Of a stretch of DNA of 64,000 nt, positions 17,013-61,139 are shown in pieces. The DNA comes from Picocystis sp. L7. Its lineage: Eukaryota > Chlorophyta > Picocystophyceae > Picocystales > Picocystaceae. Each line of letters begins with the position of its first letter. Position 1 is the first letter of the stretch. The translations under genes were made by a program, and so were the position numbers. The stretch lies in contig QXJR01000005.1 in the NCBI GenBank assembly GCA_020975725.1, positions 744,001 through 808,000 of the forward strand, in the 5' to 3' direction. The notes below the pieces were generated by a model that saw only the letters and a program-made list of their open reading frames with translations, made no database searches and was not told the DNA's origin.

Positions 17013-17050
17013 CACCGTTCAACAAGCTTCCGCCCGCGAGTGGCGAGACA

Positions 17051-25130: not shown

Positions 25131-28100
25131 TAGGTTGTGATGTTATGAAACAACTTCAGGCTTCGCTAGACATCGAGCGAAAGACCATTCAGTTGAGACA
25201 TCGCGGACGGATCGTAACCCTGGTCATGGACAAACACAAGACAATAGAGACGACCTCCGTCAACGGTCTGTCATCAGTAAGCGTAAGGACTGCACAGCTG
25301 ACTGCTCAGCACCCAACTTCTTTCAGCACTTTGGAAGAGGAGTTTGGGCCATTCAGTACCACCCTGTTTGTCTCAACAACAGCGGGGTTGGCAACACTCA
25401 ATTATGAGGAGCCTGTTGAGGCTTTGGGACAAAACTGGACAGAACTGCCTGGACCGATACTCTGCGTTCCGCCGTTAAGACTACTGCCCCAGGTTACGCA
25501 GAAATTACGAGCTTCAACACCTATGGACCTGGTCCTGTTGACACCGTATCTACCCCGCAGTCCATGGTTCAGGGAACTATAGCCCCTGGTGCAAAAGGGT
25601 AGGGTGGTTCCATCAGCAGACAGGGCTTAACTGCAACAAATAGAAACTTATGGACACAGTACCCTTGCGTGTGAAATGGTAGCTTTGCATATCAATCGCA
25701 ACACCACTGCAGAGGTAACGACGCTAGGAGCGATCCAGGTGAACCGTCCAACAGTCACTCGGGAGGCCGTCGAGGGACTACAACTGCCCGAGTCGCTAGA
25801 CGCAATACAACAGCAGCAATTAAGACGCCTGCTGCTCAAATATTTGCACCTCATGCAACCACAAGGTGACGATGAACCACCGCCACCGCCATCGGAATTC
25901 GACCATCGTATCGTCCTCACGGAGGGAGGGTCAGAGCGAGCACAAACTTGACCGATACGCTTGGCCGCTGACCAAACTAGTGAGTTACAGAAGCGATTTG
26001 AACATCGATGCAAGCGTGGGATTATGCAACGGGCAGCCATCGACAGCGAGACCTGCAGATCTGCTGTTTTCATGGTTACGCGTAAGGATGGACCTGATCG
26101 TGACGTCGTGGACTTTCGAGCGTTAAACGATGTTACAGTTAAGGATCATTTCCCTCTACCTCTCATTGAGGAATTGCTGGATCGATTAAGTCAGGCTCGC
26201 TTCTTCATAAGCCTAGACCTGAAAGAAGCCTATTACAACATACACATGCATCCGGACAGTGTGAGGTACACTGGCACCATCACTCACTTTGGTCTATTTG
26301 AATGGTTGGTGTTGGTCATGGGCATGTGCAACGTTGTCGCTACATTCCAACGTATGATGGATGCCAGATTCCATCACCTCATATATGACAAGCGCATAGT
26401 CGCTTGCTACCTCGATGACATGCTGATCTACGCGGACAGTTTCCAGGTCATGTTCGACACACTTGAGGAGGTGCTTCAGATTTGCGATCGGTACCGGTTC
26501 CGACTGAATATGCAAAAAAGCACCTGGTTTCAGACTCACCTCACATACCTGGGGCATGTAATTGGGGAGGGACAGTTACGCCCGGACCCCAGACTGATAG
26601 GGGCGGTGAGAGAATTTCCCCAACCCAGGACGCCAACGCAATTGCGATCTTTCTTGGGGCTGGCAGGTTATTACAGAAAATTCATTTCTCGCTTCCAGGA
26701 AAAGGCAGCTCCGCTTTACGAACTAACTAGGACGACAGAACCTTTGGCCGCTCGTCGGGATGAGCGAGCAGAATTGTCGTTTGTTGAGTTGGAGTTAGCA
26801 TTAACTTCGGAACCTGTTCTTAGGCTCTGGACTCCAGGGTACCCAACTGAGCTTCACACCGATGCGTCTAATGTTGGCCTGGGAGCTGTGTTGCTCCAAC
26901 AACACAGCAGTGGTTGGCACCCCGTGGCTTATTGGAGTAAATCGCTTCAGGGTGCGCAGAAAAACTATACTACCACTGAACTGGAAATGCTAGCTATTGT
27001 CCTAGCATTGCAGACATGGCGGCATTACTTGCTGGGAATCCCCTTCGTTGTTCGCACGGACCATCAGGCACTGGTGCATTATCTGAGCAAGCAGCCAACA
27101 AAATTGCAGCAGCGCGAGTTATCGTGGTTACCCCGGCTTGCCGACTTCCAGCTTACCATAGTGTACAAGCCTGGAAAATTCAATTTACCACCGGACGCGC
27201 TGAGTCGCAGACGTTCTGCGCTGCACCTCACAATGCTGGATTTGTGTGCAGGGACAGGGACCGTAATCCGCAGCCTGGCGCATGTTGTGCCAAACCATGT
27301 TCGCATCAATTACATTGCAGTTGACATCAAAGCCGAGTGCCGAACAGTTATTCAGAGAGTCTTCAATTTAGTCCAGCGCGACCGTCCAGGTCTCTTTCTA
27401 CGCAAGGACATATTCCGCCTGGGTCATGACGTTAAGGACCTGGCAAACAGGAAACTGCTTGCAGTCGACCTCATCATAGCAGGGGTGCCATGCCAACCTT
27501 TCAGTAGAGCAAATCCTTCTCGAAAAGGATTACAGGATGATCGCTCGCTGTTTCAGACGGTGCACAAACTACTTGTGCGTAGCCAAGCTACCTTCTATGC
27601 AATTGAGTGCACTCCATTTGCCCAGCACCTACAGAAAGATCTGGATGTAGTGCAGCAGCGGCTGGGGCAAGCTTCCCAGCATGACTTGAGTCACTGGTCA
27701 GCTCAACAGCGCACAAGGCTGCTATGGAGTAATCTTGACACTCAAAATTTGAAGCCCAGCTCAAAGGAAATTGTCCAACCGCTTACTTGGCAGGCCTGTC
27801 TCCGATCAGGTTGGACACCGCCGTCCGAAAAAGCGCCCACGCTGATGGCCAGCTGGGACAACACACATAATGTCAGAAATGGCCAGTCATTGGTTCAGCA
27901 AAAAGGTGGCACTACCACCAGGCAAATGGCTCCTGAAGAGCGGGAATTGTTGGTCGGGCTGCAGCCGGGAGACACAGCAACACCGGGACTGGACAAATCC
28001 ACCAGGAACGGTATGCTTGGCAATGCGTTCCCCGTCTCCTGGATCAATTCCATCATACGTATCTAGATCGATACCATCGATAACGACGCTCAGCAAACAG

Positions 28101-30040
28101 CGGCATGCTATTCGCTTCCCTCACCCGGGGCGCTGAATAGTCCTTTTTACCAAGCTGAGAATACTACTTTGCACCCTCTGCAATCAGTACTCACAGCAAT
28201 CGACATTGGTAAGATTAGCCGACTGGATGCGCTACATGCAAAAGCAGCATCGATGGATGCGGACTATCAGAAACTTCAGGAGACAGCTACCCTGCAGAAA
28301 CAAGAAGGAATGATGTATGGGATCATCCAGGGGCAAAAACGGTTGTATGTTCCTAACGACCGCACAGTTAAGAACCTCATCCTGATGACCACTCATGATT
28401 TGCCGTACGCAAGTCACCCAGGACTTCATAAAACAACTGAACTGCTGACGCGACAATATTACTGGCTTGGAATGCACGAGGACGTCAAATCATACTGCAA
28501 ACAATGTTATGCTTGCCAACTGGGCAAAATCAGCCGGCAGCGCAGCACGACCATTCTCCATCCTACAGACCATGGGTCGTACCCAAACCGCCGGGTAACA
28601 CTGGACATAGCAATGGGATTGCCGCCCAGTCACAGTTACGATGCAGTTCTGGTTGTCGCAGATCGGTTTACCAAATACACCGTCTACATTTCTATCACCA
28701 CCAGCATCACTGCGTCCGAATTAGCCTTTCAGTTTGAGTGTCACTGGGTCGCAAAACGCGGATGCCCCAGCAATTTGATCATGGACCAAGACACAAAATT
28801 CACTAGCGCGTACTTGCGCAATTTAATGGAGACCTTGGGTGTCACGGCCATGCTTACAACTGCTTACCATCAGCAGTCCGATGATCAGACAGAACGTCAA
28901 ATCTCAACGCTAGCCGACTAACTGCGGGTCGCGCTTATAGACACTTTCAGCAATGATGACGGTTGGTATCGATGCCTGCACATCACAGAATTCGCGACCA
29001 ACAACACCGTACGGGTAACTACAAGGGTTACTCCGTTTCAGGCAGAGTTGGGTCGCCACCCAACCATGCCCTTCTATTTGCTGCCCGGACCCAGCAACCG
29101 TACAATCGATAAGCATGTTGCTGAATGGTGCAAATACCAGAGGACGATATATCGTCTTATGGCAATCAATCTCGCCAAGGCTTAGGAACGCATGCAGTCT
29201 TTCAGTAACCGTACGCGAACCAGTAAAACATTTGCAAAGGGAGAAATTGCTAAGCAGCAGGGAGGACGTATGACACGCAGTGATCAGCATAAATTACAGC
29301 CACGCTTCCGGGTTAGCGAAATTGTCCGCTCCCTGGGCAAGAATAATTATGAGATCCGCTTACTTGAGGGCAGTAGCATACACCTCGTCGTGCATGCTGA
29401 CAAACAGGAAAAGTTTTGGACAGTAGATCCTACAAAGTTTCCGTTGGCTCAGCAACCTGGACCGGTTGTGCTACCGCCAGATACGTCACCGCAACCAACC
29501 GACCTAGCGCAGAAATACCCTGTTTGAAAATACCTCCTGCGCAACTGGAATTCAGTGCCACTCAGATACTATGTTCAATGGGATACCCCTACCGAAGAAT
29601 TGGGGTGGGCATATGAAGACGATGCGCTGATCAGCGACGTCGCCGTCTATGAAAAAGTGAATTGAATCCTGCCAGAAATGGGCATCACTGCTGCCAACAA
29701 GGCTGCAGTTCTCAGGCACAAACGCGTCAAATTTCAGCAAAAATCACCCATCGTTTACAACACGTGGACTGGCAAAGCTCCATGGGCAGCAACTATTGGA
29801 CGTGCGTCCACCGTGAAACTTCCAGGTTTGCAAACATTGCTTGCAGCTTATCTGCACAGAAAAGTGCAGAAACGCTTTGAGGAACAGGGACTACTGATGT
29901 ATTACGCTGGACAAGTCGTCGCCACCCCCAAAACTGGTACTGGACGATACACCATCCGTTACACGGACGGATACGAAGAAGCTGTCACACATCAAGAATT
30001 GGACAGGCTCCTTTATCGAGCCTCCGCTAGGATAGATTAA
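25131..30040 (+). mobile_element. Gyp-2: 5'-truncated Ty3/gypsy element carrying a DNMT
   Basis: Coding sequence begins abruptly at the end of the Gyp-1 3' LTR, inside a retropepsin-like domain ('GCDVMKQLQASLDIERKTI'). A DIRS-RNase H-like module follows (about 25300-25580), then RT (about 25960-26500, 'YLDDMLIYA'), RNase H (26830-27200, 'HTDASNVGLGAVLLQ'), DNMT (27230-28066), integrase zinc domain (about 28380-28540), integrase core (28560-28950) and a tail with a Tudor-like motif (29880-30000). No LTR of its own was found on either side. The element is broken, with several interruptions, and is clearly older than Gyp-1, Gyp-3 and Gyp-4. The 5' part is absent here; the sequence upstream of Gyp-1 does not look like it. 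Confidence 0.88.
27230..28066 (+). CDS. Gyp-2 cytosine-C5 DNA methyltransferase domain within pol
   Basis: The domain sits between RNase H and integrase and is continuous in frame with RT/RNase H. C5-methyltransferase motifs in order: motif I 'MLDLCAGTGTVIRSL' (SAM binding); motif II region 'INYIAVDIKAEC'; motif IV 'AGVPCQPFSRAN' with the catalytic Cys of PCQ; motif VI region 'FYAIECTPFAQH'; motif VIII 'QQRTRLLWSNL'; motifs IX-X 'RELLVGLQPGDTA' and 'GNAFPVSW'. Its size (about 275 residues) is compact, with a short target-recognition region between VIII and IX. It would methylate cytosine in DNA, possibly the element's own cDNA or genomic copies. Family assignment is firm; activity and site preference are unknown. 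Confidence 0.88.
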   Translation, partial: TMLDLCAGTGTVIRSLAHVVPNHVRINYIAVDIKAECRTVIQRVFNLVQRDRPGLFLRKDIFRLGHDVKDLANRKLLAVDLIIAGVPCQPFSRANPSRKGLQDDRSLFQTVHKLLVRSQATFYAIECTPFAQHLQKDLDVVQQRLGQASQHDLSHWSAQQRTRLLWSNLDTQNLKPSSKEIVQPLTWQACLRSGWTPPSEKAPTLMASWDNTHNVRNGQSLVQQKGGTTTRQMAPEERELLVGLQPGDTATPGLDKSTRNGMLGNAFPVSWINSIIRI

Positions 30041-39777: not shown

Positions 39778-39908
39778 ATGGACTACAAGTCTGCTGCTTT
39801 GATGAGCGAATCGTTGTTGCTTGGTTGTGTAGCTTGGTGAAGTTCAAGCATACCAAGTTTGAATCTTTTCTTCCTTTGCTCGCTTGCAGAATGTACTTCT
39901 TTTTGCTT

Positions 39909-42074: not shown

Positions 42075-42193
42075 TTTGGCGCCAAGAGACCCACACCCCT
42101 GACACTAGAGGAATGCCCTTGCAAGCCTTTCGAGACATTGCCCATGCATTTCGACGGCAACCTGCACAAGTCGTCGTCGAGATGCATAGCATT

Positions 42194-42375
42194 CCATCCA
42201 CTGTGTTTCTTCCCGTGCCCATGGTCGCCTTGCCGTTCCAGAGATCCCCCTCTCCCGTCGTCACGTCCTGTTCCGGTTCGTGTATGCCTTCGTCGATGGC
42301 ATGTGTCGACCTATTGGTTCGACACCGACGCGTCTTGGTGGCGGTCGTCCCCTCGTCTTCCGTTTCGTCCCCTAC
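42194..42375. repeat. MULE-1 right TIR, inner piece
   Basis: Inverted match to the inner end of the left repeat (about 39600-39777). Ends at the Gyp-3 insertion; its last five bases CCTAC are duplicated at 57503-57507. Confidence 0.88.
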
Positions 42376-43104
42376 TGTTGCAAAAGCGTCCGTGAGTTTT
42401 GGACACTCACACACGTGCCTTGGAGGAGAGCGTGTGTCGGGAAGGAGCCGGTGCACCGGTCTTGGGCGAGGGTCCTCGCACTCGCGGACAAAGTCCCCTT
42501 CTAGCCGGCTCGAGGCGTGGTGCCTAGCGAGGTCGACCTCCTGGTGGTTGGGCAAGCGCGTAGGCCTCAGCAAGTCGTCGAGAGAGGACGGAAGGAGGCG
42601 CGCTGGTGGTTGGCAAAGTCAAGTTCTATCTCAAAGCAAAGAGGGACGATAGGTCTACCTCTCTCACCGCCTCTCACTGGCGGTTGGAATTGGAGCAAAG
42701 GGGGTGTCTTATCCGCCTTCGTCCTCCTCTAAGTCACACCTGACCGTCCATTTTGCTCGCCCCGGAGCGACTGTGAGCTGTCACTTGCTCGACACCGTTC
42801 ACCCCCCTCAGGCCCACCCCTCACAATTGTGGATTGGGACGGGGTCGGCGGGTTCCCTTCGGTCTGTCTCGATCAAGGTCCCCGGTTCCCCTTACAAGAA
42901 GCCCGTTCTGATCGGGGGCGACCGTGCTTCAATGCAACCGGGGGAAACTGGTTCTGGTTCCGGAACGGTACTGTCGTTGTATTCCAAAGGGATATCAGAT
43001 CCCTTACTCGATGGGTAGCCTCGATGGTTCGGACCCGTAAGCCAGGGTCCCGACGGACCCTGGTGGGCCTCGTTCACAGGAGGAGGCCACTGCCTTATGC
43101 AACA
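42376..43104 (-). repeat. Gyp-3 3' LTR
   Basis: 729 bp, same length and almost identical to 56774-57502. As coding is on the minus strand, this left copy is the 3' LTR. Confidence 0.93.
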
Positions 43105-43132: not shown

Positions 43133-45941
43133 CTATACCTGAAAGTCATAGATGTATGCTATGGGGTCATGCAACATTGATCTGATCTGGTCTGCAAGAT
43201 AGTAGTCTTTCTTGCCATCTGTCCATAGCACCTCAAAGAGCCCATTGTCTTCATCTGTCACCAGCCCCTGATAATAAGCTGACTTGTCCTGCCCCTCATG
43301 GAAAAGCTCCTGCACAACTGCGCCGGTTAGGTCGGTCCGTTGCGGCTTGCGTGGCCGCTGTCTGGTCTGAAAAGGTAGCTTGGTGAATGGCCAGGTGTTG
43401 ATCATAATTGGGCTGGGTGACTGCAAGTAGGTAGTTTTCTTATGCGTCTGAACTGCTTCATAGTTAGCATCTGTGATACCCTGTTCTGGAATACACCCAT
43501 TGTGTTCTTCCAGTGGTAAAAAGTCATCCAACAAAGCTGCTGTTTCATCCACCCAGAAGTAGCGTTGCGAAGGATCTGACAGATTGCTTTCCACCCAATA
43601 GCGCACTGGCCTCGCTGGGAACGCGGAGAAATCGCGCAGCAGGTAGCGTCGTATGCGGTACTGCCTTGACTCGGTACGCATAGCATCTGTATCCGGCAGC
43701 GGGGACGCTTGCAGTTGTCGGTCTTTGTCCATCGGAAATAGCGTGAGGTCTGAATCTGTCCAGTGTTCAAGGTGATCAGCATGGATTCGTTCTGAAAATG
43801 CAGAGCCAGGTGGTAAGTCCAGTTCGTAACAGCCGTTCCTCAGCGCCCGTTTAATGACATAAGGGCCAACAAAGTATGGGTCCAGCTTATGTTTGTCAGC
43901 AGGCCCCTTGAGACCATACTGCACCTTCACCTTGTCCCCAGCTTCAAATGTTTTCTTCGGTCGATGCGCGGCAGCGGCGGCCATGCGCTCCGCAGCTTTA
44001 CGCAAATTGGCCTGGACAGTATCGTAGACCGATCGGTGCTGTTTTAATAAACTGGTTACCCGGCAGTCGAATGTCGTTACGATGTCTGATTGATTAGTGC
44101 CCTCTATGGTTGGAATCTGCAAATGCCAGGGCAGTCTGGATGGACATCCAAATAATAGCTGAAAGGGTGAGAAGTTAGTAGCTGTATGCACCGAATCGTT
44201 GTATGCGTGAGCTGCTGCTTGTAAGAACAGATCCCATTGGTGCTTATCAGAGCATGTTGTTCTCAGCGTTTGCAGGAGCGTGCGATGCTGTCGCTCTGCT
44301 CCTCCCTCCGATTGAGAATGATATGGAGTGCCAGTAACATGGCGGACTCCCAAAGCTGCACAGAAACCTTGAAACAACGATCGGTAGGCGGGCCCGTTGT
44401 CGGTATGTATATGAACTGGGGTGTGGTACTTGTACACCAGGTTATCCATTAAGCACTGAGCCTGACGATGCGCACTCCATGTGGAGTGGATCGGTATATA
44501 GATAGCGAACTTCGTGAAGCGGTCCACCACTGTCAAGACAGCATTATGGCCAAGAGCAGTGAGCGGTAGATTTTCAACCACATCTATCACAACAGTATGG
44601 AAAGGATATGGAAAGAACCTGAACTCTGGGCAAAGCTGACTGTGTCGGGACCGGTTACTGGGCTTCTGCAGTTGGCACACAGGGCAGCGTGCGACGAAGA
44701 GTTCGACGTGTCTCTTCAGGTCCTTCCACGTGAAGTGTCTTGAGGCATCTGCATAAGTTCTCGCTGAACCAAAGTGTCGCTGATCATGAACCATGTGTAG
44801 CAGCTCCTGTCTGAGGCTATTGTCTGCAGGCACCACCAGTACTGGCTGTGCATTGTCACTGGTTGTAAAAAGAAGGTTGTCCTTGACAATATGGTCTTCA
44901 GTTGGAGAATGAAGAAGTTCCTGGTAACTGGCATCATTGTCGGCAGCGATGCGTATACGCTCCAGTAGAGTAGGTGGCTCCCCTAGCGTAGCGCAGAGCA
45001 TTGAGCGCACCGATCGTGGCGTAGTAATTGACGCGATCGATCCACACACAGTCCCTGCTGGACTGCGGCATGCTAGCGGTCTAAGCGTCCGTGTGCGAAT
45101 TTGCCAACGCAGCAGCATGTGGGCAATCCATCCAACTGGAAATGCATTACCACACACGCGCTGCCGGCTCGCATCGCTTACGTTCGCTGCAGCAGTATCA
45201 CCAGGCTGCATCCCAACCAATCGCTCTCGTTCGTTAATGCTCAGCGGGCGAAGTTCGCCTCCTTCATCATGGACCCAGGTGGTTTTCGCACGATCGCTGT
45301 GCGACCGTGAGCTGGCCATCAAAGTTGGACATTTCAAGCGAGGGCGATTCAGAGCATCGCGTTGGACGGTTGCACCAGCTTCCAAGCACTCCTGCCAGGT
45401 AAGAGGTACTGGTCCTGTCGAGAGCTGAGGTTCCTGCAGAGGGGGTAGTGAGGTCCAGCATAACCTTGTACGAGCCCGCGCCCCATACTGTGACAGGTCC
45501 TCAACTACTGGTGATCCAAACCATTCAGCAATCGTGTCCAGGTGAGATTCCAGGTGAGTAGCAAATGGGGTGCACTCTAATATAAAGTCCGGACTGTTCA
45601 AGCGCTTGTGTATATTAGCAACTGCAGTGAACAGCTCTCGTTGGTCAAACAGTCCTAGGGGAGGTTTGCCTTGGTCTGTGTTCGCTCGCGAAAAGGGCTG
45701 GCAGGGTACTCCTGCTATAAGCAAGTGTACCTTGGGAAGTTTTCGCCGCTGCCCTAATATGGTCACATCATTGCCGTAACGGAATATGTCTTTGCGCGTA
45801 AACAGCCCTGGACGGGCGAGTCGTACTTGATTGAACACCCTCTGTATGACGCTGCGGCAATCTGGGTCCCTTTCGACGGCAATGTAATCGATCGTTATAT
45901 CTGTGGATGGAGGCAGAGCAATTTCCAAAGCGCGTAGCGTT
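43133..45941 (-). CDS. pol: Gyp-3 pol, 3' part: DNMT, integrase, Tudor-like tail
   Basis: The DNMT shows 'INYIAVE'-type motif II ('TIDYIAVERDPDC'), motif IV 'AGVPCQPFSRAN', motif VI region 'FILECTPFATH' and motif X 'GNAFPVGW'. Integrase follows with its His/Cys zinc domain ('HFGSARTYADASRHF', 'CPVCQLQKPSNRS'), the catalytic core ('VHIHTDNGPAYRSLF', 'PYHSQSEGGAERQHR') and an SH3-like segment ('KVKVQYGLKGPADKHKLDPY'). The tail has 'RYLLRDFSAFPARPVRYWV' and ends in a Tudor-like segment 'FEVLWTDGKKDYYLADQI'. The layout matches Gyp-4 closely, so the two are members of one family or sister families. Confidence 0.88.
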
Positions 45942-46546
45942 TGTTGTGGTTGGATGGCTTGGGGCAGGTTGTGAAGCGACAGCAGGTCGTACAACAGCCC
46001 AAGTTTCTGGCACTTTGCGTGTGGAGAAGGTTCCACGTTGAGTTGGGAGGTGCGGAGAACCAAAGCGCACCTGGAGCTGAGATGAGGAAGGTTCTAATTC
46101 AATTACAAGATCCTGTGGGAAGCCCTAGGTGGCTTCTCACAGGGGGGTGGTGTTTCCAGGCCTTATCCACCATGAGATCTGCTCCGCAAAGATCTCTTGG
46201 TGGGTCTGGTGCCCAACCCAACGGTGAAGATCCGTTCTGTTGGGGAGCAAGGGCTGCTGGAGCCCTTCTGGCCGTCCGATCCGCCAGGGCAGAGCCTCGG
46301 GATTGGGGAACCCTCGATCGAGTACCCTTCTGTGTTGGGGCCTCGAGGTAGGGACCGATCTCTGTATAGGGACCGGGGGTTCACCCAAAATGACCGGGGG
46401 GGACTGTCTGTCTCCAATCAAGCCAGAAGGGACCACCCACGCATAAGCTAGTATAACCGAATCCTGGGGCCCTTGGTTGGGTGACCCAGGATGGAGGGGA
46501 GACCGAGGCTCCTCGTAGGGGGGCCTGAGACCCAGAGTCCCTTTCA
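45942..46546 (-). repeat. Gyp-4 3' LTR
   Basis: 605 bp, TG...CA ends, near-identical to 52707-53311. It is the left copy, hence 3' for a minus-strand element. Confidence 0.93.
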
Positions 46547-46578: not shown

Positions 46579-49500
46579 TCAACTGTAAACTACTGCTACA
46601 GGGTTGTACAAAAGAGCCTGGAGCTCTGATGTCCTGTGTTTTGTCTTGAACCCATCAGTCCATACCACCGTGCGTCCATCGGTCTGTATGAGACCCTGAT
46701 AGAACTGCACGCCCTGGTCAATCTCAAAGGCCTCCATCACTACTTGTCCAGCCAGCCTAGAAGGAGGCTTCCACTGCTGCCGCTGTCGAGTGCTGTACGG
46801 CAGAGATGACCAGGTCCATGTATTCTGCAGAATAGGATTGGGGTTCCGCATGTAGATGTCTTCTTTGTGTTGCCGGACGGCGTCCAGGTTGCGCTTGCCG
46901 ATGCTGCGCTCGGGCAGGCATCCATTCGTTTCCTCCAGGTCCAATATTTCATCCAGATTCTGTGCGCTCTCGCTGACCCAGGAAGTCTGGCCATCGTGCG
47001 AGCGAGCCCGGTACTTTACTGCACCTGCTGGAAAATCCACAAAGTCGCGCACTAGATATTGCGCAATCTGTAATTGCGTCCCGCCGAGTTCCTGCACTGA
47101 GGTGGGAAGCTGGTCCAATGGCTGCGCAGCGCGATCCATTGGGAACAGTGTCAGATCTGATTCAATCCACGGTCTGAGACGATCCACGTGGAATCGATTC
47201 TGGAAGCGAGTACCGGGGGGCAGCTTCAGGCTATAGGCATCCTGACCCAATGCTCTGTCAATGCAGTAGGGCCCTTCCCAGTATGGATCCAGCTTTGGGC
47301 GATCCCGTGTGCTTTTTAGTCCATACTGGAGCTTGACCATATCCCCTGACTTGAATGTCCTGTTGGGGAGGTCCTGTGTCATGGTTGCCTGTTCGCGTGC
47401 GCGTTTCACCAGCAGGTCCCGTACATCATTGTACACTCTGCGCTGCTCGTCTAGCAAACCAGTGACCATCTTGTTGGGTGTAGTCAGCAGTTGCCTTGTT
47501 GGCAGGTCTGCTGTTGTGATCTGCAGATGCCACGGCAAGCGAGATGCACAGCCATATAACATCTCAAAGGGACTGCGTTGCAGCAACGGGTGCACGCTAT
47601 CGTTGTATGCGTGCGCTGCAGCTTGAAGGTACTGATCCCAATTGTCGGGGCGTTCGGACGATGTGCGCAGCGTCTGTAGAAGCGTGCGATGCTGGCGTTC
47701 CACTGGTCCCTGCGACTGCGAATGGTACGGGGTACCGGTCTTGTGGCTGGCACCCAAGGCTGTACAGTACGCGCCGAACAGTTTGCGATACGCAGGCCCA
47801 TTATCTGTATGAATGATGGATGGGGTATGATACCTGTACACCACACAATCCAGCAGCGCACGGGCTTGTTTCGTTGCGGACCAGGTTGTGTGCATGGGAA
47901 TGTACACAGCAAACTTCGTAAGGCGGTCGACTACGGTGATCACTGCACTGTGGTGATCAGGAGTGGCTGGCAAGCCTTCAACCACATCCACCACTACAGT
48001 ATGAAATGGATGAGGATAGAACCTCATCTCTGGAAGATGAGGCCGAGCGGCGCTCTTGTTTGCTGGCTTCATTCTCTGGCAGGTAGGGCACCGTGCCACA
48101 AATTGCTTGATGTGTGTCTTCATGCCAGGCCAGATAAAGTGTCGACGAGCTGACTCGAACGTACGATGGGCTCCAAAGTGGATGCGATCGTGCACCAGGT
48201 GAAGCAGATCCTGGCGTAGCGCATTGTCTTGAGGGACGCGCAGAACCGCTGGACCTGCGTAGCGTCCAAATTCTGCAGATGCATTGTCTTGAAACAGCAG
48301 GCCATTCCTGCATGTATATCCACCAGGTGGGTGGTCCAGGTAGGTCAAGTATTGCTGGTCATTCTGAATCGCTGTACGAATGCGTGACAGTAAAGGTACA
48401 CCTGATAGGTGTACTGCCGATCCATTGTCGCTAGGAGGGGAGTGTCGTGGAGCAGCCGTTACCAAACCACTCATAGTGATGTCACTACGGGTACCGAGCA
48501 GTTTACGAATCCATGAGTGGTACCAATCTGCTACTAGCACGGACAGCCATCCTACCGGAAAGGCGTTTCCACACATTCTTCTGCGAGCAGCAGGGGTAAT
48601 CTTGTACCCTGCTGTGTCATTGGGCTGCATGCCCACCAAGCGTTCGCGTTCCTGTATCGTCAATTCGCGCAGGGTCTGGTTTTGTCCCATGACCCAAGTG
48701 GAACGCGAGCGGTCACTGTGACTGCCTGGCGATGCCATCAGAGTGGGGCATTTCAGGCGGGGCAGGCCCTGGTTATCCAACGGGGGAGTCGCCCCAGGTT
48801 CCAAGCAGTCTTGCCAGGTTAGGGGCAACCCTGACGATAGATGTTCCTGTGGTTTGGGTGGAGGCAGATCTGTCCAGCATAAGCGAGTGCGCTGCTGGGC
48901 AGAAAAGTGAGCCATGTTGTGTTCTTGTGGCTCTCCAAACCATTCATTGATGCGCTCCAGGTCATCCTGCAGATGTGGAGCGAACGGGGTACACTCTATG
49001 ATGTAGGAGTGTCCTCCTACCAGGCGGTTGCGAATGTCTCGCACCGCTGTGAACAGTTCACGCACATCGCGCAGCCCCAGAGGGGGGTCTCTTTCTTATG
49101 TGTTGGCGCGCGAAAAGGGCTGGCACGGCACGCCAGCGATCAATAGGTCCACCGGTGGCAGCAAGCGACGATGCGCTAGGGTGCGCACATCGCTGCCATA
49201 GCGAAAGATGTCTTCGCGTATGAACAGGCCAGGTCTTGAGAGGTGAACAGAATTGAACACTCGCTGTACGATTGCTGCGCAATCGGGGTCCTGCTCCACT
49301 GCAATGTAGTTGATGGACAACTCTGCAGTTTCTGGGATGGCTTGTTCGAGGGCACGAAGGGTCGTACCCATTCCTGCACAGAGGTCCAGTACAGTTATCG
49401 TCTTGAGCGGTTTGGCTGAATCATCCACCGGGTGGCGTGAGAAGTAATCTGCGGCCACATTCTGACTTCCAGGGCGGAATTCCACGTTGAATGGGGCATA

Positions 49501-51600
49501 ATATGCCAGTTTTTCGATCCAGCGAGAGTCGCGGGGCGACAACTGCTGTACGCTCTTTGTCGTAAGGTACTTGGATGCTGTGTTATCGGTGATGACTGTA
49601 AACGGTCGGCCGAACACCAAGTGCTTCCAGTGAGCCAATGCGTAAACGATGGCACACGTTTCGCGTTCAGCAGCGTGGTAGTTTCGCTGAGCTGAATTGA
49701 ACTTGCGGCTCCAGTACTCGACCGGACGCCATTCGCCCGGGGAGATTTCCTGGTGCAGTACTGCCCCCATGCCAATATTTGACGCGTCTGTCTCGATGCG
49801 GATCGCGTGATCCTCATTGTATAGCGCCAGCGCAGGAGCAGTGGTGAGCTGGGTCACCAGCAGATCAAAAGCATGGTCATGTCGATCCAACCAGTAGCGC
49901 TGAAAGTCGTGGGCGTACTTTTTCTTGTTGAGCTCAGTGAGTGGAGCTGCAGCATCTGAGTAGTGAGGTACAAACCTCAAGTAGAATTGGCATAGGCCCA
50001 GAAAGGCCATGTTTTCTTTCTGCGATCTGGGTTTGGGGAAGTGCTGGATCTTGCTGAGCTTTTGCGGTGCGCACCGCAGCTCCTGGTTCTCGATCCTGAA
50101 CCCAACCCAGTCCAATTTGGTGCAGAAGAAATGGCACTTTGTACGTTTCAAACGTACATCTGCAGCCCTGCACACTTGGAAAAGGTCTTCAAGGTGCTGG
50201 AAGTGAGCTTCCTTGCTGGTTGAGTGAACCAGGATGTCATCCACATAGACCTTAGAAAAGGTCAAGTGTCCGAAAATCCTGTTCATCATTCTCTGGAAGG
50301 CTGCTGGGGCATTTGCTATGCCCATGGGCATTACCCTCCAGGTGTAACTCCCAAAGGGAGTCTGAACTGCTGTTTTTTGGATGTCTTCTGGGTTCATTGG
50401 CAACTGATGGAACCAGTCCAATGCGTCCAGCGCAGAAAAGTAACGGGCGCCGCCCAGCCCCTGCAGAAAGTCATCGATGCGTGGCAGAGGGTATCGATCT
50501 TTTATCGCAACATTGTTCAGCTTGCGATAATCGAACACCACTCTCCAGCCTCCATCCTTTTTGGGGACCAGGATCACTGGTGCACCCCAGGCTGAGCCTG
50601 CACAAACATCCATTTTCCCTGCATCCACATATTCACTCAGCAGCTTTCGCAACTCTTCGCGTTCTGTTGGCGACAAGCGATAGTACTGGGTGAACTGTGG
50701 TTTTGCTTCAGATTCCAGGGGGATACTGAAGTTTTCGCCGGGGACCCGTTCCGCGGGTGGACCCTTCCTTGCCTTAAAGCAGTCTGAATATTGGTCCAGG
50801 AGGTTGTCCAACCTCTGCTGTTCCGCTTCTGAGAGCGCGGCCTGCGCACTCAACTGGCTTCTGTCCTGCTGGAGCTCCTGCTCCTCTGTTTCCAATTCCC
50901 ATCGCGTGTCCTGCGGTTGTACGATGAGATACAGGCAACCCGGTGTGCGCACCGCTTGCCTAACTTCAGCGGCAGGGACGATCAAGTCGAGTCGTCGTGC
51001 CTGGATGAAGTCCCCATCGCCATGTACTGTATGGCGACGTCCGGTTGCGTCTTGGAGGATCATGGTCCCTTGCTGCCAGTTCAGCACCTGCAGGTAAGAG
51101 TTTGAAAAGTCACTGCCCAGGATACACTGAAAATCCTGGACAGGAGCAATACCAAAGTCATGCCAAACTCTGAAGCTGTCCATACTAAGTTCGAGGCGCA
51201 CAATGGGGGCGTTGTGGGTTTCCTTCCCCACAGCCACACCAAATTCCACATACTCATCTGTGGTTTTCCAGGTGATGCCTTGTGCATCAGCCCGTTGTAT
51301 CCTTTGTAACAACTGAGGTGTTACAAAGGAGAAGCTGGACAGTGTGTCCAGGTATGCTTGACTGCTCACCTTCGCTGGTCTGCGACCGAACAAGCATTGA
51401 GAGGTGAGAAACTCCTTCCTTGGAGCTGAATTATCTATTGCATGCAATGGCAGCACCTGTCCAGGTCTGCGATTCTGGACGGCCTGCAGCTGCAACGTCT
51501 GCAAATCATTCTGCTTGAGTCCTGGTTCCTTCAAGGGGGGCAGGTCCAGGTTAGGGGGAGCGTTCGCTGACGCTCCCGGCTCCATGCGGTCAACCCCCAT
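46579..51600 (-). CDS. pol: Gyp-4 pol: PR, RT, RNase H, DNMT, IN, Tudor-like tail
   Basis: In coding order: retropepsin-like domain (about 51230-51370, 'AYLDTLSSFSFVTPQLL'); RT with 'ILVPKKDGGWRVVFDYRKLN' (50510-50580) and 'YVDDILVHS' (about 50220-50245); RNase H (49430-49830, 'IETDASNIGMGAVLHQ'); DNMT (about 48510-49400); integrase zinc domain (48060-48190, 'CPTCQRMKPANKS') and core (47650-48000, 'IIHTDNGPAYRKLFG', 'YHSQSQGPVERQHR'); SH3-like segment (47200-47340); tail with 'QYLVRDFVDFPAGAVKYRA' and a Tudor-like end 'TVVWTDGFKTKHRTSELQ' (46600-46680). The order is that of gypsy pol with the DNMT inserted between RNase H and integrase. About one break overall. Confidence 0.9.
48510..49400 (-). 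CDS. Gyp-4 cytosine-C5 DNA methyltransferase domain within pol
   Basis: Motif I 'TVLDLCAGMGTTLRALEQA' lies near 49330-49390. Motif II region is 'INYIAVEQDPDCAAIVQR'. Motif IV 'IAGVPCQPFSRAN' with the catalytic PCQ is near 49105-49140. Motif VI region is 'SYIIECTPFAPH'. Motif VIII is 'QQRTRLCWTDLPP'. Motifs IX-X are 'RERLVGMQPNDTA' and 'MCGNAFPVGWLS' (near 48548-48580). All core motifs of a C5 methyltransferase are present in a compact domain of about 290 residues. It is close to the Gyp-3 copy and more distant from Gyp-2. The youngest DNMT copy of the window; activity is not known. Confidence 0.88.
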
Positions 51601-51617
51601 CGACCGCTGGAGCGCGT

Positions 51618-52683
51618 TCAGTTTTTTGAACTGAACACGGCACGGGCTTTACAGCCGCTGCCGCTGTGGCCATAGCGATGGCAGATATCGCACACCGAGA
51701 GTTGGCGGCATCGCTGAAGCAGGTCACCAGGGAGCTTTGCCTTCAGCTCATAGCCCTTGAGGTCCCCCTGGAGGGCCATGACCAATTCTTGGTCCCTCTC
51801 TTCCAGGTCCTTGAAGCGCTTGGACGCGCGCTGGGTCTTCACTGCCTCCTCCTTGGAGGACTTGCTGTCCTTCACAGCGCTGACGCGTCCCGCACGCTGT
51901 GGGCGTTTGGCAGCCTGTCCAGTCTGTTCACTGGAGCAGTTCTGCTCAATGTCCATGGCAGTTCCTGCTAATCCCCAGGGGCTGATGTCCGGGGTCTGGT
52001 GAAGTGTCACCAGCAGCTGATGCTTTTCGCGCATCCGCTGAATCATCCATATCGGGAGCCCTGCGCGGAAGCGTGCGGCCAGTTCCGCATCGGAAATGCG
52101 GGAGACTGTGGGATCCTTGCTGCTGCCTATCACTACTGACAGTGACAGCAACCTGTTCAGGAAATCCACCGCTGTTTCGTCCGTTCGCATATGAGTTCTG
52201 AGGAACTCATCGTATGCTTTTGGACCTGGGTCACATCTTTGGAAGATATTCAGCAGTGCGCTGAATATCGCATCCAAAGACTGTAGCTTTCCAGGGGCTG
52301 CTGTCTCCATGTTTTCCATTGCAAGGCGGGCTGTGCCTCCAAGTGTTTGGAGGGCCATAGCGGCCTGCGGAACGTCCTTCGCCACTCTTGCTTTGACCCA
52401 GCAAGAGGTCTCCTTATACCACCTGTGAAGGGCATAAGGATCCTTATTCAGCTCCTCCCCAGTGAAGACTGTGGGGGACGGCATTACAATGCCTTTGACT
52501 GCTCCGGACTTTCGGAGGGCTTCAAACATGTCGCTGAATTCAGCAGGTTCATGTTTGAAGTCCTCCTCTTCCTCGATGTCTTCGGGAGTGGCCAGCGACC
52601 TGGCCAAGTCCCTTTCCAGCTCCATTATCCTTTCTTCAAGGCGTGCTACTGTGGTAGCAGCCAGAACCGAATCTTCTTCCATC
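51618..52683 (-). CDS. gag: Gyp-4 gag
   Basis: I start it at the ATG at 52683 ('MEEDSVLAATTVARLEER'), just inside the 5' LTR boundary; the longer open frame to 52835 would translate LTR sequence. An N-terminal coiled coil ('ARLEERIMELERDLARSL') is followed by a capsid-type gag domain ('YDEFLRTHMRTDETAVDFLN'-type core, about 52060-52260). A C-terminal zinc knuckle CDICHRYGHSGSGC has the C-x2-C-x4-H-x4-C spacing. The frame is whole. Role: particle assembly and RNA binding. Confidence 0.88.
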
Positions 52684-52706
52684 ACGCCTGATGGACTCGT
52701 AAACTC

Positions 52707-53311
52707 TGTTGTGGTTGGATGGCTTGGGGCAGGCTGTGAAGCGACAGCAGGTCGTACAACAGCCCAAGTTTCTGGCACTTTGCGTGTGGAGAAGGTTCCA
52801 CGTTGAGTTGGGAGGTGCGGAGAACCAAAGCGCACCTGGAGCTGAGATGAGGAAGGTTCTAATTCAATTACAAGATCCTGTGGGAAGCCCTAGGTGGCTT
52901 CTCACAGGGGGGTGGTGTTTCCAGGCCTTATCCACCATGAGATCTGCTCCGCAAAGATCTCTTGGTGGGTCTGGTGCCCAACCCAACGGTGAAGATCCGT
53001 TCTGTTGGGGAGCAAGGGCTGCTGGAGCCCTTCTGGCCGTCCGATCCGCCAGGGCAGAGCCTCGGGATTGGGGAACCCTCGATCGAGTACCCTTCTGTGT
53101 TGGGGCCTCGAGGTAGGGACCGATCTCTGTATAGGGACCGGGGGTTCACCCAAAATGACCGGGGGGGACTGTCTGTCTCCAATCAAGCCAGAAGGGACCA
53201 CCCACGCATAAGCTAGTATAACCGAATCCTGGGGCCCTTGGTTGGGTGACCCAGGATGGAGGGGAGACCGAGGCTCCTCGTAGGGGGGCCTGGGACCCAG
53301 AGTCCCTTTCA
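52707..53311 (-). repeat. Gyp-4 5' LTR
   Basis: 605 bp direct copy of 45942-46546. No canonical tRNA primer-binding site was recognised next to it. Confidence 0.93.
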
Positions 53312-55528
53312 CGTTGTACCCATACCAGCACACAGATCCAGTATGCAGTAGACTGATCCACTGTCCACCTTAGCCGAATGGCGCGATAAGTAGTCTGCCC
53401 CAGTATTTTCTGATCCTGGTCTATACTCAACAGTGAAGGGGGCAAAGTAGGCTAATTTCTCAATCCATCACATCTCGCGCGGAGACAGCTGCTCTGTAGA
53501 CTTGGTGTTGAGGAAATGGCTGGCTTTGTTATCCGTAAGTACGCTGAAGTGCTGACCAAACAACAAGTGTCTCCAGTGCTGCAGAGCATATAGGATGGCA
53601 CAGGTTTCCTTCTCTGCTGGATGATAATTCTGTTGGGCTTGATTCAGCTTCTTTGACCAATATTCAACTGGGTGCCACTCCCTTTGCTCATCCTACTGCA
53701 TCAGAACTGCTCCCATGCCGATGTCCGAAGCATCCGTCTCGACTCGGATCGGTCGGTCCTCATCGAAGAGTGCCAGGACAGGTGGGTTCGTGAGTGCTGC
53801 AACCAGCTTGTTATAAGCTTCTTCTTGTGGGCCTTTCCAGTAGGATGTGAACCCATGTTTCATCGATGCCTGGTTCAACTCAGTCAATGAGGCTGTAAGT
53901 TCAGCATAATGTGGAACGAATCGCATATAGAATTGGCACAGCCCAAGGAAGGCCATATTATCGCGTTGCGACTGCGGTCGTGGGAACTGCTGGATTTTGG
54001 TAAGTAGGTGGTTGGTACACGCCAACTGTCCATTACGTATCCGAAAGCCTACCCACTCCAGAGTACTTCTGAAAAAGTGACACTTCGATCGTTTCAGCCG
54101 GATGTCGGCCTGTTCGCAGGTAGCGAAGAATTCCTCAAGGTGTTGGAAATGCTGTTCTTTTGTTTCAGAATGCACCAATATGTCATCCATGTACACCTTT
54201 AAGTAGAGCAGGTGACCAAATATTCTGTTCATCATGCGCTGAAACATCGCAGGCGCGTTGGCAGCACCCATGGGTATGACCTTCCACACATAGGATCCAA
54301 AGGGTGTGACCACTGCAGTTTTATGGATGTCGGCAGGATCCATCCTAACCTGGTGGAACCCATCCAAAGCATCCAGCGAGGAAAAGTATTTCGCACCTCT
54401 CAAGTTCTGCAGGTAGTCATCTATACGGGGCAGCGGATATCTGTCCTCGACAGTAACATTGTTAAGCAGGCGGTAGTCAAACACGACCCGCCAGCCCCCG
54501 TCTTTCTTCGGTACTAGGATTACTGGGGCTCCCCAGCTGGAGCCAGCACAAAGGTCCATTTTACCGGCATCGACGTATTCGCTGATTAACTCCTTTAGGG
54601 CAGCCTGCTGGTGAGGGGATAGCCGATAATAATTCCTGTACTGCGGGGTCGCATTTTCAGTGAGCTGTATTTTGAAGGCCTCTCCGCTAACACGCTCTGG
54701 CGGTAGCTGCGTACGAGGCTCAAATAAGCCCTTATATCGGTGATTGATCAGTCGGTCCAGCCGGTACTGATCGCTGTGGTCCAGCTCCCATTCATCGCTG
54801 ACTTTTGTCCGCATGTGGTCAAGGTCTGCTTCTTCATCGATAATTTCTGGTCTGGGATCCAGAGGCTGTATCATAAGCAATAGACAGCCTGGGTCCTGTA
54901 CCGCCTTCCGAGCTTCGCATCTGGGGACGATTAAGTCCAGCTTTCTGGATGCGATAAACTGGTGATCTCCATACACAGTGTGCTTTCTGCCATTACTGTT
55001 CTTTAAGACCATTCGGTGGTTCTGCCAGTCTAGGGCCATCAGGTGTTTGTCACAGAAGGTCCCCCCTAATATGCAATCAAATGTCTCCAGTGGTGCAACT
55101 GCGAAGGGTACTTGACCACGGAAGCCATCGATCGTAACGGTGGCCTGAATTACTGGGGCTGTATGAACCTGCTCGCCTACGGCTACGGTGAACTGCACGG
55201 CATCGCCAGTGTTCTTCCAGGTCACCCCTGCTGGGTCAGTGGACTGCAGTTCATGAAATAGTTTCTCGCTGATGAATGAGTAGCTTGCTAATGTATCAAG
55301 GTAGGCTTGTGTCCTGATTTTGTTCGTTTTCTTTCCAAAGTAAGTTTCTGCAGCTAGGAATTCCTGTCTAGGCCTTATATTACTCAATGAGTTCAGGCAG
55401 ACAGGAGTCCTTTCATTGGTAACCGGGGCTGCTGCTGGTTTCGCTCCCGGCTCCGCTCCGGTAACCTGGGTCACCGGGCGGAGTGTACTCAGTTTTTTGG
55501 GGCACCCATAACAGATGCCATTTTGCAT
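53312..55528 (-). CDS. pol: Gyp-3 pol, 5' part: PR, RT, RNase H and start of DNMT
   Basis: A retropepsin-like domain ('AYLDTLASYSFISEKLF', about 55250-55310) is followed by RT with 'ILVPKKDGGWRVVFDYRLLN' (54460-54530), 'FGSYVWKVIPMGAANAPAMF' and 'YMDDILVHS' (54170-54195). RNase H follows ('VETDASDIGMGAVLMQ', from about 53745 towards 53400). The DNMT starts at the junction with Gyp-4. Carries a small number of breaks. Confidence 0.85.
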
Positions 55529-56727
55529 GAGGACTGATCATGGCCGTAACGACGGCAGCGTTGGCACAGCCCGTGCGCAAGGCACATGTTCTTCTCTTCC
55601 TGGGACAGCTTGGCTCCGAGCGGCTTGTTCGATAGCTGAGTCTGCACCTTTATGATAGCACTCTTCTGCCCTTCATCGAGATCGTCGAATCGCTTTCGCT
55701 CTCTCCTTGCGGAGCCGCTGTCCTGATTATCCTTCGATGGCGCCGGCATCGCAGCAACTACTGGCCTTCGCATCGGTTCCAAACGGGGACGGTGATCGCT
55801 GTTGCGACGGGCAGTTGCGTAGCGATTCGTCGATTGATCATCAGCTGTCTTGGTCTCTTTGCGGGGCTGTTCAGCAGCTTCCTTTTCTAGCTTGAATATG
55901 ACTGATGCTAAGTTTCCTGGTTCCATGTCAGGAACTTTATCCACATCAATCAGGTGGTCCAGGTGCTTATACAACGCTCGCTGGAGGTAGGCTGGCAGCC
56001 CGTGCTGCAGCCTTGCTGATATATCGTTCTCCGTCAGCGTACGGCATACAGGAGATGTACTTGCGTTGACGACGAATGTCAATTGCACCAGCCGGTTCAG
56101 AAACTGTAAAGCATTTTCGCCCCGGCGCATACGGGTAGTATGAAATTCGCGCCATGCTTCGGGGCCTGGGTCTTGATTCTGGAACGTACGGCGGAGGTAA
56201 GCGTACAATTCTTCCACTGATTTGAGGGCACCTGGATCGCGCATAATGAGATTCTGCACCATTGATTTTGCTGTGCCTCCCAAAGCTTGACTGATCGCAA
56301 GTACCAACTGCTCTTTCGGACGGTCGAGAGCGTATGCTTGGCACCAACACACAACATCACGATACCAGTAAGTTAAAGCATATGGATTTTCATCAAGCTC
56401 CAGTCCAGTAAATTTTTCAGGCTTCTCCGGGGAGACCTTTTGTATGTTCTTTGAGTCCTGGAGGGCTGTTCCTTACAATGTGGTGAGATGAGGAAGTCCC
56501 TCTTCCTCGGAGGGCGCATGCGTCCCTCCTACGGTTGTCACTTGCTGATTTCCTTGGTTCTCATCGGTGATATTTTGTTCTTCGCCATCAGTTGGGTTTG
56601 TTTGCAAGGCTTCAAGCTGACCTTCGAGCTCAGCAATGCGCTCTTGGAGCGTGCTTCGCATGGCTCGTTCTTCTTCCAAGTCCCTACGGAGCGAACCCAT
56701 TCGAGTTGTGTGCTCCGGATCTTCCAT
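55489..56727 (-). CDS. gag: Gyp-3 gag region
   Basis: An N-terminal coiled-coil segment ('LRRDLEEERAMRSTLQER', 56600-56690) is followed by a gag capsid-type domain ('LQFLNRLVQLTFVVNAS', 'ISARLQHGLPAYLQRAL', about 55950-56300). The zinc knuckle CQRCRRYGHDQSSC near 55520-55565 has the same spacing as in Gyp-4. The region carries a few breaks. Confidence 0.8.
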
Positions 56728-56773
56728 TTACTTGAACGTACGGCAGTCTTCTCTCAAGTACAAGCTTAGACAG

Positions 56774-57502
56774 TGTTGCAAAAGCGTCCGTGAGTTTTGG
56801 ACACTCACACACGTGCCTTGGAGGAGAGCGTGTGTCGGGAAGGAGCCGGTGCACCGGTCTTGGGCGAGGGTCCTCGCACTCGCGGACAAAGTCCCCTTCT
56901 AGCCGGCTCGAGGCGTGGTGCCTAGCGAGGTCGACCTCCTGGTGGTTGGGCAAGCGCGTAGGCCTCAGCAAGTCGTCGAGAGAGGACGGAAGGAGGCGCG
57001 CTGGTGGTTGGCAAAGTCAAGTTCTATCTCAAAGCAAAGAGGGACGATAGGTCTACCTCTCTCACCGCCTCTCACTGGCGGTTGGAATTGGAGCAAAGGG
57101 GGTGTCTTATCCGCCTTCGTCCTCCTCTAAGTCACACCTGACCGTCCATTTTGCTCGCCCCGGAGCGACTGTGAGCTGTCACTTGCTCGACACCGTTCAC
57201 CCCCCTCAGGCCCACCCCTCACAATTGTGGATTGGGACGGGGTCGGCGGGTTCCCTTCGGTCTGTCTCGATCAAGGTCCCCGGTTCCCCTTACAAGAAGC
57301 CCGTTCTGATCGGGGGCGACCGTGCTTCAATGCGACCGGGGGAAACTGGTTCTGGTTCCGGAACGGTACTGTCGTTGTATTCCAAAGGGATATCAGATCC
57401 CTTACTCGATGGGTAGCCTCGATGGTTCGGACCCGTAAGCCAGGGTCCCGACGGACCCTGGTGGGCCTCGTTCACAGGAGGAGGCCACTGCCTTATGCAA
57501 CA
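56774..57502 (-). repeat. Gyp-3 5' LTR
   Basis: 729 bp, TGTTGCA...TGCAACA, direct copy of 42376-43104 with one difference noticed. Followed directly by the duplicated target CCTAC (57503-57507). Confidence 0.93.
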
Positions 57503-58697: not shown

Positions 58698-58707
58698 AAT
58701 CGTAGGA

Positions 58708-61005: not shown

Positions 61006-61139
61006 CTTCCCACCTGAAGCCTACCGCCCCCCCCCATCCACCACTCTCCAAACTTCCATTTCGGCAGTTTACCTGATATTACGTCTACGCGTACCTTTTC
61101 CCAACATCAACCCCTCTTTGTCCTCCTATGTGTACACAA

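What the first reader, a model, noticed from the sequence alone, without database searches (positions are those of the whole stretch)
48510..49400. Very young gypsy element encodes a full set of DNMT motifs inside pol
Gyp-4 carries C5-methyltransferase motifs I, IV (PCQ), VI, VIII and IX-X between RNase H and integrase. Its LTRs differ at only about two positions by eye, so the domain has been kept through recent transposition. DNMT-bearing retrotransposons are established in dinoflagellates and charophytes; whether this lineage is the same acquisition is open. A retroelement that writes cytosine methylation could mark itself, hide from or exploit host silencing, or protect its cDNA.
Basis: partly seen in the sequence, partly recalled or inferred. 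Interest (0 to 1): 0.85.

Follow-up and report, generated by a model that had tools for sequence, protein, structure and literature searches.

The report
Jumping genes carrying a DNA methyltransferase
Several virus-like jumping genes in this stretch of an unidentified eukaryote's genome carry an enzyme domain related to the DNA-methylating enzymes of the DNMT3 family, kept by natural selection although the copy first noticed is broken, which suggests that such elements chemically mark DNA, perhaps their own, while they copy themselves.

Summary
At 48,500-49,400 (minus strand) a Ty3/gypsy element (LTRs 605 nt, 2 differences) encodes a C5-cytosine methyltransferase domain between RNase H and integrase. 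In this copy one in-frame TAA (49096-49098) falls between motifs IV and VI, so it is no intact enzyme. Yet the domain recurs at the same place in two other gypsy elements of the window and, in an uninterrupted pol frame, in a relative on a stray contig, probably from soda-lake sediment. Profile and fold comparison class it with DNMT3. Between lineages whose synonymous sites are near saturation it stays under purifying selection. Two things go beyond what I found in print. The methyltransferases of two deeply separated gypsy lineages resemble each other more (48-51%) than their RT (35-39%) or integrase (29-31%), so the module was probably exchanged. And pol ends in a Tudor-like domain (firm in one of four elements), so one polyprotein may join a 5mC writer with a chromatin reader. 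DNMT-bearing retrotransposons are known (Symbiodinium LINE/DIRS, Klebsormidium gypsy): this is a new variant. Host, kinship with those elements, and activity remain untested.

The parts
45942..46546 (-). 3' LTR of Gyp-4 (605 nt, TG...CA)
   Evidence: 2 differences to the 5' LTR
52707..53311 (-). 5' LTR of Gyp-4
   Evidence: flanking 4-bp CGTT at 45938-45941 and 53312-53315 read as target-site duplication
51621..52889 (-). gag frame of Gyp-4, ends AAAAAAC TGA (slippery heptamer from 51627)
49099..51648 (-). Gyp-4 pol, first open piece: protease region, RT, RNase H, DNMT motifs I-IV
   Evidence: protease by homology to Gyp-3, where Pfam finds it weakly
49096..49098 (-). in-frame TAA inside the DNMT domain of Gyp-4
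46582..49095 (-). Gyp-4 pol, second open piece: DNMT motifs VI-X, integrase (H2C2, rve, SH3_Tf2-1), C-terminal module
48547..49395 (-). DNMT domain of Gyp-4 (motif I to motif X), in two open pieces
46582..46878 (-). C-terminal Tudor-like module of Gyp-4 (label only by homology to the Gyp-2 module)
   Evidence: Pfam finds no Tudor in this copy on its own
42376..43104 (-). 3' LTR of the outer element Gyp-3 (729 nt, 1 difference to the other LTR)
   Evidence: 5-bp duplication CCTAC at 42371-42375 and 57503-57507
56774..57502 (-). 5' LTR of Gyp-3
53696..55537 (-). Gyp-3 pol, first open piece (protease region, RT, start of RNase H); in-frame TAG and TGA follow
53312..53467 (-). Gyp-3 end of RNase H and DNMT motif I (ILDLCAGMGTT 53312-53344), cut by the Gyp-4 insertion
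43136..45931 (-). Gyp-3 pol, last open piece: DNMT from just after motif I to motif X, integrase, C-terminal module
25952..28063 (+). Gyp-2: one open frame RT - RNase H - DNMT with motifs I to X (27230-28042)
28067..28918 (+). Gyp-2 integrase piece (H2C2, rve), after a TAG
   Evidence: rve 29.8 bits, below its cut-off 32.6
29666..30037 (+). Gyp-2 C-terminal Tudor domain
   Evidence: PF21743 28.7 bits, cut-off 27.2
16802..22762 (+). Gyp-1 gag-pol, a relative without recognisable DNMT; 21833-22456 is an unexplained insert where the others have the DNMT

Best explanation
This is a lineage of Ty3/gypsy LTR retrotransposons in an unidentified eukaryote whose Pol polyprotein reads protease - RT - RNase H - DNMT3-type C5-cytosine methyltransferase - integrase - Tudor-like domain, probably expressed from gag by a -1 frameshift. 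The copy reported (Gyp-4) is young but has a stop codon in the methyltransferase. Its lineage kept the domain under purifying selection. Most likely mechanism (inferred): the methyltransferase, carried in the particle next to RT and integrase, methylates the element's own double-stranded cDNA before integration. The new copy then enters a host genome that itself looks CpG-methylated already resembling native DNA, while the Tudor-like tail guides integration to marked chromatin. Shown by sequence: architecture, kinship with DNMT3, constraint, presence in several families, the broken copy.
For: Domain order and E-values. DNMT profile against solved structures (positions 74-300 of 327): the first 26 of 48 matched sequences are DNMT3A/3B/3C at E 5.5e-11 to 9.1e-9; the next are a 'cytosine-specific methyltransferase' (3lx6) at 2.1e-3, HhaI 7.5e-3 and DRM2 1.3e-2. 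The 50 Foldseek rows listed (of 1586 matches at E up to 10) are all DNMT3 entries, though the model is of low confidence. The Cys of PCQ, the Glu of ECT and RTR of motif VIII stand in Gyp-2, Gyp-3, Gyp-4 and L007 alike. Uninterrupted 1324-aa pol frame with the DNMT in L007. Purifying selection: Gyp-4 versus Gyp-3 pN/pS of the DNMT pieces 0.30 and 0.44, RT 0.23, RNase H part 0.40, integrase H2C2 plus core 0.41, pS 0.67-0.88; Gyp-3 versus L007 DNMT 75% amino-acid identity over 288 codons, dN/dS about 0.09 (bootstrap 0.055-0.152) at pS 0.70. Slippery AAAAAAC before the gag stop in Gyp-3 and Gyp-4. CpG depletion with TpG excess in three host-like gene frames, as expected where CpG is methylated. 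Precedent: SymbioDIRS DNMT3 domains methylate CG de novo in yeast (PMC5890265, Results read).
Against: No activity data. Motif IV is PCQ rather than DNMT3's PCN and motif VI ECT rather than ENV in the four copies; Gyp-3 also lacks the Q of motif VIII. In the published assay the Klebsormidium gypsy DNMT gave no methylation, called inconclusive by its authors. No CpG signature specific to DNMT-bearing elements. The copy in question has a stop in the domain, and Gyp-1 transposed (two LTRs) without a recognisable DNMT. The Tudor-like label rests on Gyp-2: 1 of 4 modules passes a Pfam Tudor cut-off, and a profile of the other three finds no Tudor in the PDB. Saturation makes the dN/dS values rough.
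Confidence: 0.6

Rival explanations
1. The DNMT acts on host chromatin at or around insertion sites (the Tudor-like tail reads a mark, the DNMT writes 5mC), silencing the new copy so that it does little harm, rather than methylating cDNA.
For: Writer and probable reader lie in one polyprotein on either side of the integrase.
Confidence: 0.25
2. The domain is a catalytically dead relic kept for a structural or nucleic-acid-binding role.
For: Motif VI reads ECT instead of ENV in the four copies and motif VIII of Gyp-3 has lost its Q; Gyp-1 may carry a reduced relic without PCQ (5 of 300 shuffles and 0 of 138 real windows reach its score; but searches do not support it); this copy is broken.
Against: The catalytic Cys, Glu and motif VIII arginines are kept across near-saturated synonymous divergence.
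Confidence: 0.15
3. Host DNMT3 gene fragment or assembly artefact juxtaposed with a gypsy element by chance.
For: None found.
Against: Same position in three elements of the window and on an unrelated contig, in frame with RT.
Confidence: 0.01
4. On the history only: the closer DNMT likeness of Gyp-2 to Gyp-3/4 is rate variation and not exchange; the DNMT was acquired once in the common ancestor of the four elements and lost in Gyp-1.
For: The four share the C-terminal module, and three share the insertion site; BIC prefers proportional branch lengths across RT-RNase H, integrase and DNMT (13782.8 versus 13811.4).
Against: The distance ratio outside/within is 1.45 (1.22-1.77) for the DNMT and 3.12 (2.61-3.77) for RT-RNase H plus integrase, 0 of 2000 bootstraps overlapping (for part of RNase H alone 10 of 2000); AIC prefers unlinked branch lengths (13723.4 versus 13733.9).
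Confidence: 0.35

Closest known systems
KnitGypsy-Dnmt3 of Klebsormidium nitens (PMC5890265, Results and Discussion read)
   Same: DNMT3-type domain inside the Pol polyprotein of a gypsy element, under purifying selection
   Different: Its repeats are described as DIRS-like; Gyp-3 and Gyp-4 have ordinary direct LTRs. Where the DNMT sits in its pol and how similar the sequences are could not be compared here
SymbioDIRS-Dnmt3 and SymbioLINE-Dnmt of Symbiodinium (PMC5890265)
   Same: Retrotransposon-borne DNMT; the DIRS type is DNMT3-like
   Different: DIRS elements use a tyrosine recombinase and the LINEs an endonuclease; here the integrase is of the rve type, with LTRs
Gypsy-10_Ec32 of Ectocarpus (PMC12477816, passages read)
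   Same: Gypsy pol ending in a Tudor domain, called there to the authors' knowledge the first reported TE with one
   Different: No DNMT is mentioned for it in the passages seen, and the paper says Ectocarpus lacks cytosine methylation; kinship not testable here
DNMT3A/3B
   Same: Best sequence and fold match
   Different: PCQ for PCN, ECT for ENV; 18-22% identity in the fold alignments listed; no ADD or PWWP part in the pol (those names recalled)

Membership tests
Ty3/gypsy LTR retrotransposon | RT-RNaseH followed by an rve integrase in pol, direct LTRs TG...CA with short target-site duplication | tested here: met
   best solved relative of the RT is Ty3. The Gyp-4 duplication is read as 4 bp (CGTT); that of Gyp-3 is a clean 5 bp
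DNMT3 family | Closest to DNMT3 among C5 methyltransferases of solved structure | tested here: met
   PDB entries only, no tree with protist DNMTs
DNMT3 family | Motif IV PCN and motif VI ENV, as seen in the DNMT3A chain | tested here: not met
   PCQ and ECT in the four copies
KnitGypsy-Dnmt3 | DNMT3-type domain inside gypsy Pol | tested here: met
KnitGypsy-Dnmt3 | Repeat structure like that of DIRS elements | tested here: not met
   direct LTRs at both ends of Gyp-3 and Gyp-4
KnitGypsy-Dnmt3 | Sequence kinship | not testable with these tools
   no charophyte sequences held
SymbioDIRS-Dnmt3 / SymbioLINE-Dnmt | Tyrosine recombinase (DIRS) or LINE endonuclease | tested here: not met
   rve integrase and H2C2 found, neither of the others among the Pfam hits
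Chromovirus (chromodomain gypsy) | Chromodomain at the integrase C-terminus | tested here: not met
   no chromodomain among Pfam hits at E up to 5 for six C-terminal stretches of the four elements
Tudor-bearing gypsy (Gypsy-10_Ec32 kind) | C-terminal Tudor domain | tested here: inconclusive
   Gyp-2 passes PF21743; Gyp-1, 3 and 4 only by homology to it; a profile without Gyp-2 finds no Tudor
Active C5 methyltransferase | Methylates cytosine | not testable with these tools
   no bench or methylome data

The most novel reading that the evidence does not exclude
A clade of gypsy retrotransposons carries an epigenetic kit in one polyprotein, a DNMT3-type 5mC writer and a Tudor-type histone reader on either side of the integrase, and the writer is a module traded between gypsy lineages whose reverse transcriptases are about as far apart as either is from yeast Ty3, so that it behaves as a selfish, recombining cassette and not as a one-off capture of a host gene.
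Probability: 0.4. Interest if true: 0.75.

Novelty: new variant of a known kind. Interest (0 to 1): 0.56.

Why it matters
Why a parasite of the genome would carry the enzyme used to silence it is an open question (posed in PMC5890265). Elements with an uninterrupted DNMT-bearing pol frame, ordinary LTRs, a conventional integrase and a probable chromatin reader would let the cDNA, target-chromatin and self-silencing models be tested in a standard LTR-retrotransposon setting. If the DNMT really moves between gypsy lineages, it gives a repeatable advantage.

Tried and rejected
Chance or single insertion: rejected (three elements and L007). Neutral decay of the DNMT in the lineage: rejected. A DNMT-specific CpG signature: rejected; at codon junctions CpG observed/expected is 0.58-0.69 in three Gyp-4 frames, 0.63, 0.63 and 0.96 (gag) in Gyp-3, 0.61 and 0.85 in Gyp-2, 0.35-0.65 in three host-like glycosyltransferase frames, 0.66 and 0.28 in two MULE-like frames, and 0.94 in Gyp-1, 0.93 in a DDE_Tnp_4 frame and 0.88 in the frame at 62270 (all 16 frames told). 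Gyp-1 insert as a decayed DNMT: not established; pairwise scores were reached by 420, 377, 826 and 50 of 1000 shuffles in four comparisons, hhalign probability 0.4%, a low-confidence model (pLDDT 44.5) without a fold match at E up to 0.001, while its score against a DNMT profile is reached by 5 of 300 shuffles and 0 of 138 real windows. Host identity: failed. No dinoflagellate spliced leader within 3 mismatches, no tRNA, no Rfam match at gathering scores, no genome held. Viral contigs: six scans; only one search gave loci, 6 with 32-34% identity to the DNMT, which I did not examine further. Genome contigs: one scan, 47 stretches, 1 relative, L007. An insertion age was not computed for want of a rate.

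Full report
WHAT IS THERE. The region lies in a nest of mobile elements on the minus strand. Gyp-4 has LTRs 45942-46546 and 52707-53311 (605 nt, 2 differences) and sits inside Gyp-3, whose LTRs 42376-43104 and 56774-57502 differ at 1 of 729 positions. Gyp-3 is flanked by a 5-bp duplication, CCTAC; Gyp-4 by a 4-bp repeat, CGTT. Gyp-3 itself seems to interrupt one arm of a long inverted repeat of a MULE-like transposon (arms 39104-39778 against 42193-42375 plus 57503-57999; the reading is mine). Gyp-4 landed just after DNMT motif I of Gyp-3. Gyp-4 (0.33% between LTRs) is nested in Gyp-3 (0.14%); with so few differences the order of the two values means nothing.

THE METHYLTRANSFERASE. Gyp-4 pol is open from 51648 to 49099 and from 49095 to 46582, with one TAA between. 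The first piece ends in motif IV, GVPCQPFSRANT; the second opens with the stretch before motif VI. Pfam DNA_methylase scores 1.3e-5 in the first piece, 1.8e-8 in Gyp-3 and 5.8e-10 in Gyp-2. A six-frame scan of the window with a profile from Gyp-2 and Gyp-3 matches 4 of 1554 segments: Gyp-2, Gyp-3 and the two Gyp-4 pieces. The fourth gypsy, Gyp-1, has another sequence in that place. Against solved structures the first 26 of 48 matches are DNMT3A, 3B and 3C (5.5e-11 to 9.1e-9, profile positions 74-300), ahead of a 'cytosine-specific methyltransferase' (2.1e-3), three shorter DNMT3B isoforms (3e-3 to 6e-3), HhaI (7.5e-3) and plant DRM2 (1.3e-2). An AlphaFold2 model of the Gyp-2 domain is of low confidence (pLDDT 56.8, pTM 0.58, four sequences), but the 50 listed Foldseek matches are all DNMT3 entries (E 4e-12 to 2e-10, TM about 0.6). 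Motifs IV (PCQ) and VI (ECT) depart from DNMT3 in the four copies, and Gyp-3 has RARTR where the others have Q.RTR in motif VIII.

AN INDEPENDENT COPY. A scan of prokaryote genomes with an integrase alignment matched 47 stretches, of which 1 encodes a relative: L007, a 4661-base contig filed in a Rhodobacteraceae MAG, B1Sed10_197m. Gypsy frames cover it end to end, so I take it to be a mis-binned eukaryotic contig. It holds the end of gag and one uninterrupted 1324-aa pol frame, running off the contig, with RT, RNase H, DNMT and integrase. Of the window elements it is closest to Gyp-3 (RT-RNase H 86%, DNMT 74%, integrase 83%). PMC6146748 (passages) names B1Sed10 as a high-salinity soda-lake sediment dataset and Bitter-1 as a salt-saturated lake; equating B1 with Bitter-1 is my inference.

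SELECTION. Between Gyp-4 and Gyp-3 pS is 0.67-0.88 and pN/pS is 0.23 for RT, 0.40 for part of RNase H, 0.30 and 0.44 for the two DNMT pieces, 0.41 for integrase H2C2 plus core, 0.45 for the protease region and 0.54 for the C-terminus. Between Gyp-3 and L007 the DNMT keeps 75% identity over 288 codons at pS 0.70, dN/dS about 0.09 (bootstrap 0.055-0.152); RT and the integrase core keep 88%, RNase H pieces 80 and 85%, the protease region 69% and the linker with H2C2 63% (dS could not be computed for RT, RNase H and the integrase core). The DNMT is constrained, less than RT.

EXCHANGE OF THE MODULE. Gyp-2 RT-RNase H is 35-39% identical to Gyp-3, Gyp-4 and L007, about as yeast Ty3 is (36-37%); its integrase 29-31%; but its DNMT 48-51%. 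Outside/within distance ratios are 3.12 (2.61-3.77) for RT-RNase H plus integrase and 1.45 (1.22-1.77) for the DNMT, 0 of 2000 bootstraps overlapping. The earlier version without L007 gave 3.24 and 1.46, also 0 of 2000, with 10 of 2000 for part of RNase H taken alone. By likelihood AIC favours separate branch lengths and BIC proportional ones. In the RT tree Gyp-1, without a recognisable DNMT, lies nearer Gyp-3/4 than Gyp-2 does; Gyp-2 groups with Ty3 at 84% support, which could be long-branch attraction. Against a deep split, Gyp-2 shares the C-terminal module with the others. I read this as probable, not proven, exchange.

THE TAIL. The four gypsies of the window share a module after the integrase. 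In Gyp-2 it passes the Pfam cut-off for a Tudor domain (PF21743, 28.7 against 27.2 bits) and matches Tudor_5 at 1.2e-5, below that family's cut-off. A four-row profile has 15 PDB matches at E up to 5; 12 are proteins with Tudor domains (SETDB1, eggless, lamin-B receptor, spindlin-4, 53BP1; that the matched part is the Tudor is recalled) and 3 are microcephalin; the best E is 0.0096. Without Gyp-2 the profile finds no Tudor. PMC12477816 (passages) reports a Tudor-bearing gypsy in Ectocarpus as, to its authors' knowledge, the first of its kind.

EXPRESSION. In Gyp-3 and Gyp-4 gag ends AAAAAAC TGA and overlaps pol; by the coordinates pol lies in the -1 frame, the layout of -1 ribosomal frameshifting.

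HOW IT PROBABLY WORKS. A DNMT placed between RNase H and integrase would be packaged with the reverse-transcription machinery. Methylating the fresh cDNA would let it enter a genome that looks CpG-methylated (CpG depletion and TpG excess in three host-like frames) as if native. This is inference; PMC5890265 offers the same idea for SymbioDIRS and shows de novo CG activity for those, not for its gypsy.

NOVELTY. DNMT-bearing retrotransposons, gypsy elements included, are known. PMC6338049 (passages) speaks of DAM- and DCM-encoding Ty3/Gypsy and DIRS elements in many lineages; PMC12344493 (passages) mentions DNMT3 in LTR Copia and DIRS elements. Paper searches (listings, some cut: 20 of 34, 40 of 44, 8 of 20) showed me no report of a gypsy with both a DNMT and a Tudor-like tail, nor of DNMT exchange between gypsy lineages; subscription papers are mostly not in that library. 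The host is not identified, so the question of the same or a new acquisition stays open.

Noticed in passing
21833-22456 (+): Gyp-1 has an unexplained ~200-aa insert between RNase H and integrase, where its relatives have the DNMT; weak likeness to the DNMT N-half, no PCQ.
   Followed up: partly
39104-42375 with 57503-57999; 58002-61840: Two MULE-like transposons (label by eye, no Pfam transposase hit) with inverted repeats of about 675-700 nt and 721- and 765-aa frames; Gyp-3 sits in one arm of the first.
   Followed up: partly
2-1816, 5878-6714, 10301-11254: Open frames for a GT4-like plus DUF5672 protein, a GT90 and a GT29 (sialyltransferase-type) glycosyltransferase, probably host genes.
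   Followed up: partly
63336-63975: Tandem array with 32-nt period; copies 64 nt apart are nearly identical.
   Followed up: no
30338-31420 (-): DDE_Tnp_4 transposase frame, not clearly CpG-depleted.
   Followed up: partly
52660-52706; 56730-56773: By eye no TGG-type primer binding site directly after the 5' LTRs of Gyp-4 and Gyp-3; the primer is unclear.
   Followed up: no
L007 (PUNI01000121.1): Apparently eukaryotic retrotransposon contig filed in a bacterial MAG.
   Followed up: yes
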